This document shows positions 1 to 5,728 of a DNA stretch of 23,319 nt, piece after piece. Numbering within the stretch: the first letter of the stretch is position 1; each line of letters begins with the position of its first letter. The position numbers and the translations under genes are program-made. Source of the stretch: Actinomycetes bacterium. GTDB lineage: Bacteria > Actinomycetota > Acidimicrobiia > Acidimicrobiales > Bog-793. The stretch is taken from the NCBI GenBank assembly GCA_021785095.1, contig JAJYGM010000259.1, positions 4,252 to 27,570 on the forward strand, in the 5' to 3' direction. Under the pieces are notes generated by a model, which saw nothing but the letters and a program-made list of their open reading frames with translations, did no database searches and was not told the origin of the DNA.

Positions 1-283
1 CCACAGCGAGCCAGACGACGGCCGTGGTGCCGGCCGACCGCCCGGGCCGGGGCACGAGATGGTTGACAACGCTCCTCGTGAGCAACGGGTTGACGGCACC
101 AACAACAGCATCGACCACGATGAGCACCAAGAAGACCGCCAGCATGCGCCGGTACGGGCGGGCGAACCCGGCGACGCGGCGGACGATCCCCTTCGGGAGC
201 GTCTGGTTGACGACGCTCTTGTCCCTTCGGAGCGAGCGCATGGCGCTCCAGCCCTCGCCGCCGCCCATCATTCGCATTCCCAT
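1..283 (-). CDS. ABC transporter, membrane-domain N-terminus (partial)
   Basis: This is the 5' end of a minus-strand gene that runs off the window start; about 94 residues are visible. The protein opens with a Met/Gly-rich cytoplasmic stretch and a basic segment ending in RPYRR. A hydrophobic helix (AVFLVLIVVDAVVGAV) follows, then NPLLTRSVVNHLV. This layout is typical of the first transmembrane helix of ABC exporters that fuse permease and ATPase, where the 'NPLL...' region follows helix 1. The ATP-binding domain would lie outside the window, so the class is inferred from the N-terminus alone. The ATG at 283-281 is preceded by GAGGAAAG about 12 nt upstream. The gene diverges from lon across about 210 bp. 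The substrate cannot be told. Confidence 0.72.
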   Translation of the reverse strand, partial: MGMRMMGGGEGWSAMRSLRRDKSVVNQTLPKGIVRRVAGFARPYRRMLAVFLVLIVVDAVVGAVNPLLTRSVVNHLVPRPGRSAGTTAVVWLAV

Positions 284-493
284 GTCAGTGCCGTTCTTTC
301 CTCGTTAGGGGCGTGAACACCCCGACGCCCGGAACATTCCCGCCGAGCAGGGGTTACTGCCTGCGCGCGCAATGCGGTGCACGGAATATCCAACGGTCGT
401 CTGTGTTTGCCTAGACAAGTATTTCTCCTGGGTGGGGCAGCGACTGCACGTCTCGTTGCTTGGCCACGGAGCGGGCAACGAACCGGAGGCACT

Positions 494-2911
494 GTGGCCG
501 AGCACGACGAACAACTCACGCTTCCCCTGCTGACACTCACCTCCGGCGTGGTCTTGCCAGGCATGGTGTTCACCCTCGCGCTAGAGACCGACGAGTCGCG
601 GGTGGCAGTCGAGGCGGCGCGCGCGGCCGGCGGGCGCCTGCTCGTGGTCCCGAACATCGAGGGCCGCTACGCCCGGGTGGGTGTGATCGCCCAGATCATC
701 GAGGAGGGTGAGCTTCCGGGCGGCCCGACCGCGGTCATCATCGAGGGCGAGCAGCGTGGCGAGATCGGCACGGGCGTTCCCGGGACCGGTCAGGCGACGT
801 GGGTGCAAGTCGAGCCGATCGTCCACAGCGAGCCGACCTCCCAGGAGACAGAGCTGGCCCGCGAGTACCGAGCCGTCCTCGAGAACATCCTGCTCACAAG
901 AGGTGCCCGCCGTATGGCCGAGCGGCTCCGCGGCGTCCATGAGCCGTCGGAGATCGCTGACCTTGCCGGCTATTCGCCCGATCTCAGCTTGGAGGCGAAG
1001 GTCCAGGTCCTCGAGACGATCGACCTGGAGACGCGGCTGCGCCTGGTGCTCGGCTGGGCGCGTGAGACCCTTGCCGACCTTGCTCTTCGCGACCAGATCA
1101 AGTCGAGCGTCGAGGAGGGGATGGAGAAGACGCAGCGCGAGTTCCTGCTCCGGCGCCAGCTCGAAGCAATCCGCAAGGAGCTCGGGGAGCTCACGGGCTC
1201 GGCCGCGGAGACCACAGGTCCCGATGACTACCGCTCCCGGCTGGAGGCGCTCGAGCCTCACCTGTCGGAGACCGCGACGGCGGCGATCGCGAAGGAGATC
1301 GACAAGTTCGAACGTTCGAGCGAGCAGAGCCCCGAACGGGGCTGGATCCAGACCTGGCTCGACACCGTGTTCGAGCTGCCGTGGGCAAAGGAGTCCGAGG
1401 ACCGGCTCGACATCTCGGAGGCCTCCCGCATCCTCGAGGAGGACCACGACGGGCTGGCGGACGTGAAGGACCGCATCCTCGAGCACCTCGCCGTTCGCAA
1501 GTTGCAGTCCGAGCGGGGGCTCGTGCCCGTCCACGGCGGCCGCGGCGCCGGCGCGATCCTGGCGCTCGTCGGTCCTCCCGGGGTGGGCAAGACGTCGCTC
1601 GGGGAGTCAGTCGCTCGGGCGCTCGGCCGCAAGTTCGTCCGGGTCGCCCTCGGCGGCGTGCGCGACGAGGCGGAGATCCGCGGGCACCGTCGGACCTACG
1701 TCGGAGCACAACCGGGGCGCCTCGTCCGCGCCATCAAGGAGGCCGGCACGATGAACCCGGTCATCCTCCTCGACGAGGTTGACAAGCTCGGCGCGGACTA
1801 CCGGGGCGACCCGTCGTCGGCGCTGCTGGAAGTCCTCGACCCGGCGCAGAACCACACGTTTCGGGATCACTACCTCGAGATCGAGCTCGACCTGTCGAAG
1901 GTGCTGTTCCTCGCTACTGCGAACGTCGCCGAGACGATCCCGGGGCCCCTCTACGACCGACTCGAGGTGATCCGGCTCGACGGCTACACCGACGACGAGA
2001 AGGTCTCCATCGCCCGCCATCACCTCCTCCCCCGCCAGCTCGAGCGGGCTGCGCTGAAGGCCGACGAGGTTGTGGTCTCCGACGACGCGCTGAGGACGAT
2101 CATCGGCGACTACACCCGCGAGGCCGGGGTGCGCTCCCTCGAGCGTGAGCTCGGCCGGCTGTGTCGCAAAGTGGCGACGAAGCTCACGACCGACGCCGTC
2201 GAGGCACCGGTCATCGTGAGCGCGGGCACGGCACGGGAGTGGTTGGGGCGGCAGCGTTTCTTCTTCGAGGCTGCGGACCGGACCGCTGTGCCCGGCGTCG
2301 CGACAGGCCTGGCCGTGACCGGCATGGGCGGCGACGTCCTGTACGTGGAGGCGACTGCCCTCGAAGGCGGCGAAGGCCTGTCTCTCACGGGTCAGCTCGG
2401 CGACGTCATGAAGGAGTCCGCGGAGATCGCCCTCTCGTACGTGCGCTCCCACGCTTCGGACCTCGGCCTCGAGCCGGACAGGTTCTCCGGGAAGCGCTTC
2501 CACGTCCACGTGCCTGCAGGCGCGGTCCCGAAGGACGGCCCGTCCGCCGGTGTCACGATGACGACGGCACTCGTGTCGTTGCTCACCGGGAGGTCCGTCA
2601 AGGCGTCGGTGGGGATGACCGGCGAGGTCACCCTGCAGGGGCTCGTCTTGCCAATCGGAGGCGTGAAGCAGAAGGTGCTTGCGGCGTGGCGTGCCGGGCT
2701 CCGCGAGGTCGTGCTCCCGGTGCGCAACGGACCTGATCTCGAGGACGTGCCAGAGGCCGTGAGGGAGCAGATGACGTTCCACCTGGCGTCGAACGTCGGA
2801 GACGTGCTGGAGGCCGCGCTCGCACCTGCCACTGCCGATTCTGATTCGGATTCGGATTCGGTCGCCGTGGCTGTGGAGGACTCGACCGCAGCGTCACCTG
2901 CGGCGGCCTGA
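494..2911 (+). CDS. lon: ATP-dependent Lon protease
   Basis: Lon is a cytoplasmic AAA+ serine protease that unfolds and degrades damaged and regulatory proteins. The GTG at 494 gives 805 residues, the usual Lon length. It follows GGAGG (485-489), and the typical Lon opening (LTLPLLTLTSGVVLPGM) begins a few residues later. The frame stays open upstream to 377, but that stretch looks non-coding. The N-terminal substrate-binding domain is followed by a coiled region, the Walker A motif GPPGVGKT (about 360-367) and Walker B VILLDEVDK (about 423-431). The C-terminal peptidase domain has the catalytic Ser in PKDGPSAG (S684) and the catalytic Lys in GGVKQK (K725). The last 25 or so residues are a low-complexity acidic tail with Ser-Asp repeats. 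The gene is monocistronic. In Streptomyces lon is controlled by HspR, but I saw no clear HAIR box upstream here. Confidence 0.97.
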   Translation: MAEHDEQLTLPLLTLTSGVVLPGMVFTLALETDESRVAVEAARAAGGRLLVVPNIEGRYARVGVIAQIIEEGELPGGPTAVIIEGEQRGEIGTGVPGTGQATWVQVEPIVHSEPTSQETELAREYRAVLENILLTRGARRMAERLRGVHEPSEIADLAGYSPDLSLEAKVQVLETIDLETRLRLVLGWARETLADLALRDQIKSSVEEGMEKTQREFLLRRQLEAIRKELGELTGSAAETTGPDDYRSRLEALEPHLSETATAAIAKEIDKFERSSEQSPERGWIQTWLDTVFELPWAKESEDRLDISEASRILEEDHDGLADVKDRILEHLAVRKLQSERGLVPVHGGRGAGAILALVGPPGVGKTSLGESVARALGRKFVRVALGGVRDEAEIRGHRRTYVGAQPGRLVRAIKEAGTMNPVILLDEVDKLGADYRGDPSSALLEVLDPAQNHTFRDHYLEIELDLSKVLFLATANVAETIPGPLYDRLEVIRLDGYTDDEKVSIARHHLLPRQLERAALKADEVVVSDDALRTIIGDYTREAGVRSLERELGRLCRKVATKLTTDAVEAPVIVSAGTAREWLGRQRFFFEAADRTAVPGVATGLAVTGMGGDVLYVEATALEGGEGLSLTGQLGDVMKESAEIALSYVRSHASDLGLEPDRFSGKRFHVHVPAGAVPKDGPSAGVTMTTALVSLLTGRSVKASVGMTGEVTLQGLVLPIGGVKQKVLAAWRAGLREVVLPVRNGPDLEDVPEAVREQMTFHLASNVGDVLEAALAPATADSDSDSDSVAVAVEDSTAASPAAA

Positions 2912-2920
2912 CCTGGGCTT

Positions 2921-2935
2921 GCGGACTGCGTCCGC
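2921..2935 (+). terminator. possible hairpin terminator of lon
   Basis: A perfect 6-bp stem (GCGGAC/GTCCGC) with a 3-nt loop lies 10 nt after the lon stop codon. No T-run follows, which is common in high-GC actinobacteria, so termination is only inferred from position. Confidence 0.35.
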
Positions 2936-2988
2936 TCGCGCGCCCCGACACATCGGGCGTCACGTCGGCGCTCGCCGGTGGGTGCGAG

Positions 2989-3032
2989 GTGGCAGGCAGA
3001 TCGCGCCGTTTGTGTGCGCTTTTGCCTGCCAC
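2989..3032 (+). repeat. palindromic repeat, copy 1 (left flank of nuclease gene)
   Basis: A 44-bp hairpin element. Its outer arms GTGGCAGGCA (2989-2998) and TGCCTGCCAC (3023-3032) are perfectly complementary across 24 nt. A further GCGC/GCGC pairing inside is possible with a one-base bulge. The first 17 bases (2989-3005) are an exact reverse complement of the last 17 bases of copy 2 (4150-4166), and both copies are 44 bp long. The two copies therefore lie in opposite orientation around the gene at 3129-4094. They resemble REP or miniature-element palindromes in form. No family name is assigned. Confidence 0.8.
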
Positions 3033-3128
3033 TCTGCAGGCCGGGCCGGGCCTGGCGGCCGATTTCCACAAGCGCCGCGGTCGACAACGGTAGGTGCGGC
3101 GGTAAGTCCCTGACCGAGGCTCGGCGGG

Positions 3129-4094
3129 GTGAGCACTGCATCAGCGCGCCAGGCCCTGAGTCTTCTCGCCATCCGTCAAGGAGGAGTCGTCAGCAGGACC
3201 CAGGCCGGTGACGTCGGACTGAGCCGAGGCGTCCTGCGCAGGATGATCGATCGCGGCGAGCTGGACGAGCAGGACAAACTCTTACGGCTCACTGGTGTGA
3301 AACGGTCAGGGTCCACCCGGCTCTGGACAGCGGTACTCGTCACTCACGGATGGCTCTCGCATCTGAGTGCTGCCCGGCTCATCGCCGGCGACCGCCTCCT
3401 ACCGGAAGCCGTCCACGTCACCGTGCGGCGCGGGATGGCCACTCGATCCCCGGAGTGGGTACGCGTGCACAGCTCCCGGCGTCTTCCACGCCAGCACACG
3501 ACCACCCACGAGTCCGGGCTGCCGCACACCGTCCTGCCACGGACGTTCGTGGACCTTGCGGCCTCGGCTGTGTTTTCGGACCAGCAGCTGGTCGACTTTA
3601 TCGACGCCTGGATGACTCAGAGCGGACTCAGCCTGAGGTGGATCGCGTGGTTCCTCGAGCACGAGGCTGAGTCGCTGCCCGGTCGCCGCCGAGCGCTCGG
3701 CATCTTGCACTCGCTCGGAGGAGGCACGGTCGACAGCGGGGGCGAACGGATCGCTCAACGACTGTTCGCAGCTGCCGGGATACCGCCTCCGGTGCTGCAC
3801 CACCCGTTCGCCGTCGGCGGCCGGATCGTGGCGGAGATCGACTTCGCGTGGCCCGCTCACCGGGTCGCCCTCGAGATCGACAGCTACAAGTTCCATTCGG
3901 GGCCGAGGGTCTTCGTGGCCGACCGTCGGAAGGGCAACAAGATCGAGCTCGAGCGGTGGACCCTGTTGCGGATCCCGGCAGCAGACCTGCGTGACGAGCC
4001 GGAGCAGGTCGTAGCCACGGTGCGGCGCGCGCTCGAGGTCAGCGGAGCGGTCCTCGGCCCGCGCGTGGGTGAACCTCGGCCCCCACACGGGTGA
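3129..4094 (+). CDS. AbiEi-like winged-helix plus DUF559 (Vsr-fold) nuclease-like protein
   Basis: A 321-residue protein of the type common as scattered paralogues in actinobacteria. Residues about 1-75 look like the AbiEi-type N-terminal helix-turn-helix ([21 protein letters not shown]...). The middle has the usual HVTVRRG and LPRTFVDLA segments. The C-terminal part from about 200 resembles DUF559, a PD-(D/E)XK domain with the Vsr fold: Glu in SGGER (E206), Asp in EIDFAW (D238), ALEID (E249, D251), then a basic region ([18 protein letters not shown]). All expected acidic residues are present, so nuclease activity is plausible but not shown. The GTG at 3129 follows GAGG about 9 nt upstream. 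No toxin partner lies next to it, so a type IV toxin-antitoxin role is unsupported. Inverted palindromes flank the gene, and it overlaps the antisense read-through frame of ahcY. Confidence 0.8.
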
Positions 4095-4103
4095 ACCTCG
4101 GCC
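4067..4103 (+). repeat. 22-bp-period direct duplication across the nuclease gene stop
   Basis: GGGTGAACCTCGGCC occurs at 4067-4081 and again at 4089-4103, a period of 22 bp. The second copy carries the TGA (4092-4094) that ends the DUF559 gene. In the first copy the same TGA is out of frame. This suggests a small tandem duplication that shaped the C-terminus. Confidence 0.75.
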
Positions 4104-4122
4104 TCGGCCCGGCATGGTGAAA

Positions 4123-4166
4123 GTGGCATGCAAACCGCGCCAGGAAAGACGCGATCTGCCTGCCAC
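4123..4166 (-). repeat. palindromic repeat, copy 2 (right flank of nuclease gene)
   Basis: A 44-bp palindrome in reverse orientation to copy 1. Read on the minus strand it can form a 19-bp stem with a 6-nt loop (TTTCCT), with one true mismatch and three G-U-type pairs. The outer arms are GTGGCATGCA (4123-4132) and TGCCTGCCAC (4157-4166), which differ at one position. Bases 4150-4166 match the start of copy 1 exactly in reverse complement. It ends two bases before the 18-bp tandem repeat. Read-through transcripts from ahcY would contain this hairpin, so it could act as a terminator. Confidence 0.8.
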
Positions 4167-4167
4167 C

Positions 4168-4272
4168 CCGGTGGTAGAGCCGCCGGTGGTGGTAGAGCCG
4201 CCGGTGGTGGTAGAGCCGCCGGTGGTGGTAGAGCCGCCGGTGGTGGTAGAGCCGCCGGTGGTGGTAGAGCCG
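4168..4272. repeat. 18-bp tandem repeat (minisatellite)
   Basis: Five identical 18-bp units (CCGGTGGTGGTAGAGCCG) start at 4183, 4201, 4219, 4237 and 4255. A 15-bp variant lacking one GGT precedes them at 4168-4182. Because 18 is a multiple of three, no frame is broken. In the ahcY read-through frame on the minus strand it would encode GGSTTT repeats, and on the plus strand VEPPVV repeats. Identity between units implies recent expansion and likely copy-number variation between strains. It lies between the canonical ahcY stop (4300-4302) and palindrome copy 2. Confidence 0.95.
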
Positions 4273-4299
4273 CCGAGGGCGAGCAGAGGCGAGGCGCGA

Positions 4300-5728
<1,429 letters not shown>

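What the first reader, a model, noticed from the sequence alone, without database searches (positions are those of the whole stretch)
2989..4166. Nuclease-like gene bounded by inverted copies of a 44-bp palindrome: candidate mobile cassette
Two 44-bp hairpin elements lie 111 bp before and 31 bp after a single AbiEi/DUF559 gene, in opposite orientation. They share 17 identical bases and the same overall length. Copy 2 folds as a near-complete 19-bp stem with G-U-type pairs. The gene's Vsr-fold acidic residues look intact. One hypothesis is that the palindromes are termini or recognition sites for this nuclease, making a self-contained 1.2-kb element that inserted between lon and ahcY. DUF559 proteins are abundant actinobacterial paralogues without a known job, so a palindrome link would be new to me.
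Basis: partly seen in the sequence, partly recalled or inferred. Interest (0 to 1): 0.75.

Follow-up and report, generated by a model that had tools for sequence, protein, structure and literature searches.

The report
Palindrome family with its own nuclease
A gene for a predicted DNA-cutting enzyme in an actinobacterium sits between two copies of a ~50-letter palindrome that is also scattered around its genome, and dozens of related bacteria carry a similar gene between copies of their own, different palindrome, which looks like an undescribed class of repeat-plus-enzyme system.

Summary
The window gene (3129-4094) is predicted to be an AbiEi-type DNA-binding module joined to an EDxHD/Vsr-fold (DUF559) nuclease. 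It lies between two copies of a hairpin with seven further dispersed copies in its genome; its four paralogues there lack matched flanking palindromes. Of 104 related genes from the same order, 59 have matching inverted flanks (score >20; 0 of 2,200 mismatched controls); without the four seeds, 56 of 100. Hairpins overlap the match on both sides in 43 of the 59. Nucleases over 60% identical usually share palindromes; more distant ones rarely do. I searched 16 bracketing palindromes in their 12 genomes: every printed match is the genome's own, and printed rows show dispersed copies in 8 of 12 (the list is truncated). In one genome, 20 of 20 fetched best-scoring copies are identical over 50 bp. 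Dispersed copies favour gene 3' ends. The layout resembles REP/RAYT, with an unrelated enzyme. AbiEi is published to bind two 23-bp inverted repeats 3 bp apart, about this palindrome's size. That the nuclease spreads the palindromes is inferred; no insertion, empty palindrome site or target duplication was seen. A 1.2-kb element inserted between lon and ahcY is not shown.

The parts
2984..3037 (+). Palindrome copy 1 (54 bp, hairpin arms about 2988-3033), upstream of the nuclease gene, starting 73 bp after the lon reading frame ends
   Evidence: R2 model 46.3 bits on +
3129..4094 (+). AbiEi-DUF559 nuclease gene, 321 aa (P0001)
   Evidence: ORF; Pfam AbiEi_4 E 1.1e-5 (above its cut-off) and MTES_1575 E 1.6e-4 (below its cut-off); PADLOC AbiEi E 3.6e-18; AlphaFold2 mean pLDDT 92.3
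3132..3719 (+). Residues 2-197: AbiEi antitoxin-like two-domain module
3729..4049 (+). Residues 201-307: EDxHD/Vsr-fold nuclease domain
4118..4171 (-). Palindrome copy 2 (54 bp), downstream of the nuclease gene, in opposite orientation to copy 1
   Evidence: R2 model 51.8 bits on -; upstream/downstream pair score 25.0

Best explanation
The window holds one nuclease-palindrome pair of a system found in many genomes of its order (Acidimicrobiales by inference). A gene for an AbiEi-type DNA-binding module fused to an EDxHD/Vsr-type (DUF559) nuclease lies between two copies of a ~50-bp near-perfect palindrome, and further copies of the same palindrome are scattered in the genome, mostly just 3' of genes. 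Shown by sequence: the hairpins, the bracketing, dispersal of the bracketing palindrome in several genomes, its restriction to the nuclease lineage, near-identity of the best copies in one genome, and the 3'-end preference. Predicted: the fold. Inferred: (1) the protein binds its palindrome, one AbiEi module per arm, as AbiEi binds two 23-bp inverted repeats 3 bp apart; (2) the nuclease cuts or nicks the palindrome, probably as an extruded hairpin or during replication, since cutting every duplex copy would destroy the chromosome; (3) repair of these breaks copies palindromes to new sites and homogenises them. The palindromes would then behave as REP-like non-autonomous repeats and the bracketed gene as their dedicated enzyme, the role proposed for RAYT transposases with GTAG REPs.
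For: Bracketing: of 142 hits printed for the palindrome-flanked subfamily I examined the best 110; 104 had both flanks. 71 score >15.5, 59 >20 and 50 >25, against 7, 0 and 0 of 2,200 mismatched-genome controls. Without the four seed genes: 67 and 56 of 100. Of the 59, hairpins overlap the match on both sides in 43 and on at least one in 56. Neighbouring genes: 5 of 267 >15.5, two of which are these nucleases, so 3 of 265. The window gene scores 25.0; its four G000 paralogues 8.5-9. Dispersal: 16 bracketing palindromes from 12 genomes searched in those 12; every printed row falls on the genome's own palindrome, and printed rows include copies away from the nuclease gene in 8 of 12 genomes. 20 of 20 fetched G263 copies identical over 50 bp with unlike flanks. 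Covariation: 19 of 25 pairs with two-sided changes. Co-occurrence: 18 of 24 genomes with the R2 palindrome have the nuclease subfamily at 1e-40 versus 55 of 274 without (taking the two draws of 298 as the same genomes). Specificity: nucleases >60% identical share palindromes in 6 of 9 pairs, those <50% in under 1%. Relative P0004 (63% identical) ends in a peptide that reads like a window-type palindrome. Fold: AbiEi plus I-Bth0305I. Literature passages: AbiEi binds two 23-bp inverted repeats; I-Bth0305I dimerises on a target of nearly 60 bp.
Against: No insertion event, target-site duplication or matched empty site for a palindrome was seen. The G048/G101 comparison found one shared locus among 9 versus 17 sampled loci, inconclusive. 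33 of 104 subfamily genes show no matched pair at 15.5, and 16 of the 59 clear pairs lack a called hairpin on one or both sides. In 4 of 12 genomes (G238, G136, G059, G233) only rows at the nuclease gene were printed, so dispersal there rests on unprinted tallies of 27-82 rows. G048 has many copies of a palindrome whose cognate nuclease was not found. P0001 is a diverged member (26% identical to the first seed); its nearest positional relative (G006) has no such palindromes. A homing-type nuclease with dozens of intact sites should damage its own genome unless restrained. No biochemistry was found for this protein.
Confidence: 0.6

Rival explanations
1. Operator explanation. The upstream palindrome is an AbiEi-type operator by which the protein represses its own gene. 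The downstream and dispersed copies are duplicated operators forming a regulon or a sink, and the nuclease acts on something else, such as phage DNA.
For: AbiEi proteins autoregulate by binding two 23-bp inverted repeats (PMC7319586 passages), about the same overall size. In 37 clean cases the upstream palindrome ends 29-150 bp before the profile match start, 29 of them within 80 bp, where an operator could lie.
Against: Dispersed copies lie mainly at gene 3' ends: 41 convergent, 29 tandem, 9 divergent of 88, against 20, 60 and 52 of 132 background gaps, so shared promoter regions are under-represented. A second copy at the gene's own 3' end is not needed for autoregulation. Identity of 20 copies at 50 of 50 positions exceeds what operator function should need.
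Confidence: 0.15
2. RNA 3'-end explanation. The palindromes are transcribed hairpins that act as bidirectional terminators or 3'-end stabilisers, and the linked nuclease processes or protects them; spreading is a side effect of selection for terminators.
For: Median 14 bp from stop codon to element, and enrichment between convergent genes. Stable RNA folds and strong covariation. A consensus scan of window 2880-4320 finds one terminator-like site, at 3002-3018 inside palindrome 1 (0.3 expected).
Against: A T-run after the whole hairpin is not the rule: TTTT within 12 nt at 4 of 40 hairpin sides in G263. Independent terminators would not be identical at 50 of 50 positions at 20 sites. The nuclease domain resembles DNA endonucleases.
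Confidence: 0.15
3. One reading: the gene with its two palindromes moves as one 1.2-kb element.
For: In four seed genomes the 3' palindrome overlaps the gene's stop codon. Cassettes sit at different places: lon-ahcY, a sigma-factor/dehydrogenase locus and a HAD-hydrolase locus (gene names by recognition).
Against: Same-genome paralogues that both score >20 are 25-68% identical and mostly carry unlike palindromes, so recent gene copies are not seen while palindrome copies are abundant. G035/G088 share one locus and G127/G036 another, which looks inherited.
Confidence: 0.08
4. No link: ordinary terminators or REP elements that happen to flank this gene.
For: Palindromes are dispersed, and none of the 23 PF18741 matches in six palindrome-bearing genomes fell on a palindrome place then known.
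Against: Two of those 23 (G048 C26, G044 C43) were later found to have matched palindromic flanks, and that profile missed the divergent members. The direct test gives 56 of 100 non-seed genes versus 0 of 2,200 controls.
Confidence: 0.02

Closest known systems
REP / REPIN elements with RAYT (REP-associated tyrosine transposase)
   Same: Short palindromes dispersed in a genome; a dedicated enzyme gene beside or between copies of the cognate repeat; several repeat-enzyme pairs can coexist in one genome, each enzyme distinct (PMC3733652 and PMC3116915, passages). REPs too lie mostly 3' of genes (recalled, not seen in a call).
   Different: The enzyme is an AbiEi-EDxHD nuclease, not a Y1 HUH transposase; no GTAG tag at the immediate ends of the window or G263 palindromes; the clean palindromes measured are 43-56 bp against the 20-40 bp given for REPs (abstract start).
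CGTC REPs
   Same: Dispersed palindromes not linked to RAYT; PMC3733652 states they apparently lack a dedicated transposase (passages).
   Different: No CGTC tag at the immediate ends of the window copies; here a dedicated enzyme is proposed.
AbiE type IV toxin-antitoxin system (AbiEi antitoxin)
   Different: A nuclease domain is fused; the neighbouring genes are lon and ahcY, not an AbiEii-type toxin; the putative site is dispersed.
EDxHD homing endonucleases (I-Bth0305I) and Vsr
   Different: The gene sits between two complete palindromes with many more in the genome, not inside its own site; it is not beside a cytosine methyltransferase in the window.

Membership tests
REP elements (broad sense) | Short palindromic repeat in several dispersed extragenic copies | tested here: met
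   Nine copies of the window type counting both window copies; 82 of 88 sampled copies or arrays from 12 genomes not inside a called gene, 3 of those at a contig edge
REP/RAYT | Y1 HUH transposase (PF01797) as associated enzyme | tested here: not met
   PF01797 in 2 of 7 genomes searched (G000, G058), none in G035, G048, G044, G037, G003; the bracketed protein is predicted AbiEi plus EDxHD
REP/RAYT | Enzyme gene flanked by its own repeat | tested here: met
   59 of 104 genes >20 versus 0 of 2,200 controls; copies of the same palindrome elsewhere in the genome printed for 8 of 12 genomes
REP/RAYT | GTAG tag at one end of the repeat | tested here: not met
   No GTAG at the immediate ends of either window copy (one lies a few bases beyond copy 2, in the tandem repeat) or of 20 G263 copies; other families' ends not scanned
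REP/RAYT | Demonstrated mobilisation or excision | not testable with these tools
   Needs population sequencing or an in vitro assay
AbiE toxin-antitoxin | AbiEi fold | tested here: met
AbiE toxin-antitoxin | Adjacent AbiEii (DUF1814) toxin gene | tested here: not met
   Neighbours in the window are lon and ahcY (names by recognition)
EDxHD homing endonuclease | EDxHD catalytic fold with conserved residues | tested here: met
EDxHD homing endonuclease | Gene interrupts its own recognition site (intron, intein or insertion) | tested here: not met
   Gene lies between two complete palindromes, with more intact copies elsewhere; the true recognition site is not known
Insertion sequence with terminal inverted repeats | Near-identical whole-element copies and target-site duplications | tested here: inconclusive
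   Same-genome nucleases 25-68% identical; flanks of 20 G263 copies show CCY|palindrome|RGGY preference, no duplication by eye
Known structured RNA families | Match to an Rfam family | tested here: not met
   0 matches at gathering threshold in the window

The most novel reading that the evidence does not exclude
Acidimicrobiales carry an unrecognised class of selfish repeat system. An AbiEi-EDxHD nuclease reads a ~50-bp palindrome as two AbiEi half-sites and multiplies it through hairpin cleavage and repair. Many nuclease-palindrome pairs with different specificities coexist, up to five in one sampled genome (G233), making this a non-RAYT route to REP-like repeats and a natural library of palindrome-specific DNA-recognition modules.
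Probability: 0.5. Interest if true: 0.95.

Novelty: categorically new. Interest (0 to 1): 0.87.

Why it matters
Here a large subfamily gets a concrete candidate partner: a specific DNA palindrome that can be read off the genome, so binding and cleavage can be tested directly. REP origin is an open question; RAYT is the dedicated enzyme proposed for GTAG REPs, and CGTC REPs are said to lack one. This would be a second, unrelated enzyme with the same arrangement, and a set of nuclease-site pairs from which recognition rules could be learned.

Tried and rejected
Rfam scan of the window: 0 matches. PF18741 search for a DUF559 link looked negative at first; reading the genes between close palindrome pairs revealed the link. 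Y1 transposase as mover: in 2 of 7 genomes only. Scan of named genomes with P0001: no relative; with the A4 alignment: 5 loci, two of which are seed genes again. Plasmid and phage collections: no match. Sister species G048/G101: one shared locus, inconclusive (whose printed list was cut; full recount). Sequence search of solved structures with P0001 alone: none.

Errors of mine: first runs of the paired-palindrome and protein-similarity tests used the wrong strand for 11 of the first 30 loci; one search corrects them. The counts quoted (neighbouring genes, G000 and G006 genes) do not depend on those strands. One search failed on a syntax error; one search stopped with an error after printing its table. 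Genes were called with a home-made codon-score script, so orientation counts are approximate. Seed genes were chosen for lying near palindromes; counts without them are given. The 20 G263 copies were chosen from the best-scoring printed rows. Gene names lon, ahcY, cofD, HAD, sigma factor and dehydrogenase are by recognition, not from a family search.

Full report
1. The observation. The window has one 321-aa gene at 3129-4094 between lon and ahcY (neighbours named by recognition), and two hairpins as an inverted pair: arms 2985-3033 and 4122-4170, 76% complementary over 49 nt. The 18-base core occurs exactly once on each strand, with 0.09 matches expected at up to 3 mismatches and none of 100 shuffles giving two. 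Each copy folds far better than shuffles on at least one strand. Measured gaps are 95 bp before the GTG start and 27 bp after the stop.

2. The palindromes are dispersed. In the window's genome (G000, 81% complete) an arm search and a covariance model find seven further places: C3, C65, C1, C76, C118, C34 and a weaker one on C146. Eight copies, including both window copies, share a spacing of 24 nt between 9-base arms. Caveat: window bases 1 to about 4232 are not in G000's contig C25, which begins inside the tandem repeat, so the nuclease locus comes from sequence that runs past the held contig. The same protein from a later start codon (P0002, 100% identical, 283 aa) is recorded on 4 contigs, the longest of 48,212 bases.

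3. The family across relatives. The same architecture occurs with different arm sequences in other genomes. Forty-one copies from six genomes including the window align over 55 columns. Of 25 pairs, 19 show changes on both sides, 87.3% of cells pair, and no slid control exceeds 37%. A model of these (R2) hits 24 of 298 genomes of the order at E <= 1e-5, in 22 of 172 genera, a patchy spread; that search scored only 19 candidates per genome. With more candidates scored, ten such genomes give 10 to 102 strand rows each at E <= 1e-4.

4. Where copies lie. Of 88 dispersed copies or arrays from 12 genomes, 41 lie between convergent genes, 29 between tandem genes, 9 between divergent genes, 6 inside a called gene and 3 at a contig edge. 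Of 132 background gaps in the same loci, 20 are convergent, 60 tandem and 52 divergent. The median distance from stop codon to element is 14 bp. Genes were called with my own script, and the copies are the better-scoring ones.

5. The link to the nuclease. A Pfam search first suggested no link: none of 23 PF18741 matches in six genomes fell on a palindrome place then known; two of them (G048 C26, G044 C43) later proved to have matched palindromic flanks. Reading the genes between close palindrome pairs changed this. In G035 and G088 an AbiEi/DUF559-like gene lies between two palindromes at one shared locus. In G127 and G036 another lies beside a shared HAD-type gene with palindromes on both sides. 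In these four the 3' palindrome overlaps the gene's stop codon. Pfam scores two of these four proteins weakly.

6. The systematic test. A profile of those four proteins (A4) hits 73 of 298 genomes at E <= 1e-40. I examined 110 of 142 printed hits, the best-scoring ones; 6 were dropped because a contig end cut a flank below 150 bases. For each gene I aligned the upstream flank to the reverse complement of the downstream flank. In the strand-corrected run, 71 of 104 exceed 15.5, 59 exceed 20 and 50 exceed 25. For 2,200 pairings of flanks from different genomes the counts are 7, 0 and 0, with a maximum of 19.5. Without the four seeds, 67 and 56 of 100 pass 15.5 and 20. In 43 of the 59 a hairpin overlaps the matched stretch on both sides, in 56 on at least one. 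Among 267 neighbouring genes 5 exceed 15.5; two are these nucleases themselves, leaving 3 of 265, one of them a cofD-like gene that lies between two palindromes. The window gene scores 25.0, its four G000 paralogues 8.5-9, and the G006 gene in the lon-ahcY gap 8.5. Thirty-three of 104 genes show no pair at 15.5.

7. Cognate dispersal. I searched 16 bracketing palindromes from 12 genomes against those 12 genomes. All 12 contain matches (20 to 84 strand rows each, at most 40 candidates scored per genome). By query coordinate, every printed row is a match to the genome's own palindrome. The list is truncated to the best rows. Printed rows include copies away from the nuclease gene in eight genomes (G112, G101, G263, G170, G171, G313, G183, G088); for G238, G136, G059 and G233 only the row at the nuclease gene was printed, so dispersal there is suggested only by their tallies (54, 27, 28 and 82 rows). 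I fetched 20 G263 copies from the best printed rows: all 20 are identical over 50 bp (190 of 190 pairs), the flanking sequence differs, and the immediate flanks favour CCY before and RGGY after; 10 lie between convergent, 9 between tandem and 1 between divergent genes. Genomes with the R2 palindrome carry the A4 nuclease more often: 18 of 24 versus 55 of 274 (Fisher 6.7e-8), taking the two draws of 298 as the same genomes. The six without are G000, whose own gene is the more diverged P0001, and G058, G075, G239, G276 and G287. G048 and G101 carry many copies of a palindrome for which I found no cognate nuclease.

8. Palindrome follows nuclease lineage. Among 59 clear cases (1,711 pairs), nucleases more than 60% identical share palindromes in 6 of 9 pairs, those 50-60% identical in about 8% of 36, and those under 50% in under 1%. 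The rank correlation is weak (0.17) but none of 2,000 permutations reaches it. Same-genome paralogues (32 pairs) mostly have unlike palindromes; three pairs are partly alike (scores 18.5-20). Among 37 clean upstream hairpins the median length is 51 bp (43-56), and CTGG is over-represented in the outer 12 bases (15 of 37; the top 4-mer in 300 shuffles reaches at most 10). P0004, 63% identical to P0001, ends in a peptide that closely resembles a translation of a window-type palindrome, so that relative appears to carry a like palindrome at its 3' end; its DNA was not seen.

10. How it probably works. From passages of PMC7319586, AbiEi binds two 23-bp inverted repeats separated by 3 bp, 49 bp in all. 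From passages of PMC3943268, I-Bth0305I dimerises on a target of nearly 60 bp. A palindrome of 43-56 bp read by an AbiEi-EDxHD dimer would fit both. Binding, cutting and copying are inferred. Because dozens of intact sites coexist with the enzyme, unrestrained duplex cleavage is unlikely; a hairpin, cruciform or replication-linked substrate is my preferred guess. As to the terminator rival, the window scan finds one terminator-like site, inside palindrome 1 (0.3 expected), and TTTT follows within 12 nt at 4 of 40 hairpin sides in G263.

11. Comparison with known systems. [quoted passage not shown] The present system shares that layout but no component: PF01797 is in 2 of 7 genomes, the enzyme is unrelated, and no GTAG tag lies at the ends of the window or G263 palindromes. 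So it works like REP/RAYT but is not a member. Literature searches for DUF559 with palindromes, AbiEi or inverted repeats, for DUF559 alone (14 papers, listing only), and for REP with endonuclease, RAYT or short-patch repair found no report of the link in what was listed. The library lacks most subscription papers.

12. The lon-ahcY site. In G006 a 43.6%-identical gene lies between lon and ahcY; R2 finds nothing there at E <= 1 and the gene's two flanks do not match each other, though an unrelated inverted repeat follows lon. In G005 and G017 lon abuts ahcY. Of 30 ahcY loci fetched, lon was seen in these three only; the own-genome locus is cut by its contig end. Thus the gene's presence varies, but when and how gene and palindromes came together here is unresolved.

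13. Organisms. Iamia majanohamensis is in Acidimicrobiales, so the order searched is taken to be Acidimicrobiales.

Noticed in passing
window 4170-4275: An 18-bp unit repeated 5.9 times with 100% matches directly beside palindrome 2; tandem arrays with other units also lie beside the G000 copies on C3, C76 and C34.
   Followed up: partly
window 4280-4330 and L149 1-90: The window's ahcY reading frame runs on without its stop through the tandem repeat, whereas G000 contig C25 has the normal end; the two differ by an indel near the last codons, so this is probably an assembly difference.
   Followed up: partly
window 1-4232: This part is absent from the held contig C25, which starts inside the tandem repeat.
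   Followed up: partly
L118 2464-2876 (G278) and L119 2727-2904 (G127): Tandem arrays of the hairpin, with about 72-bp and 62-bp spacing.
   Followed up: partly
L129-L145 (G048) and L109-L117 (G101): A high-copy palindrome (TTGCGTAGG-type arms) without a cognate nuclease among the hits examined; these genomes also carry a second palindrome type beside a nuclease gene.
   Followed up: no
L128 2001-3110 (G240): A cofD-like gene also lies between two of the palindromes.
   Followed up: no
L085 3931-3981 (G058): A 51-bp hairpin with perfectly matching 20-base arms and an unrelated sequence, perhaps another family.
   Followed up: no
L068 / G000 C149:37637-38002: A single Y1 transposase gene in the window's genome.
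   Followed up: no
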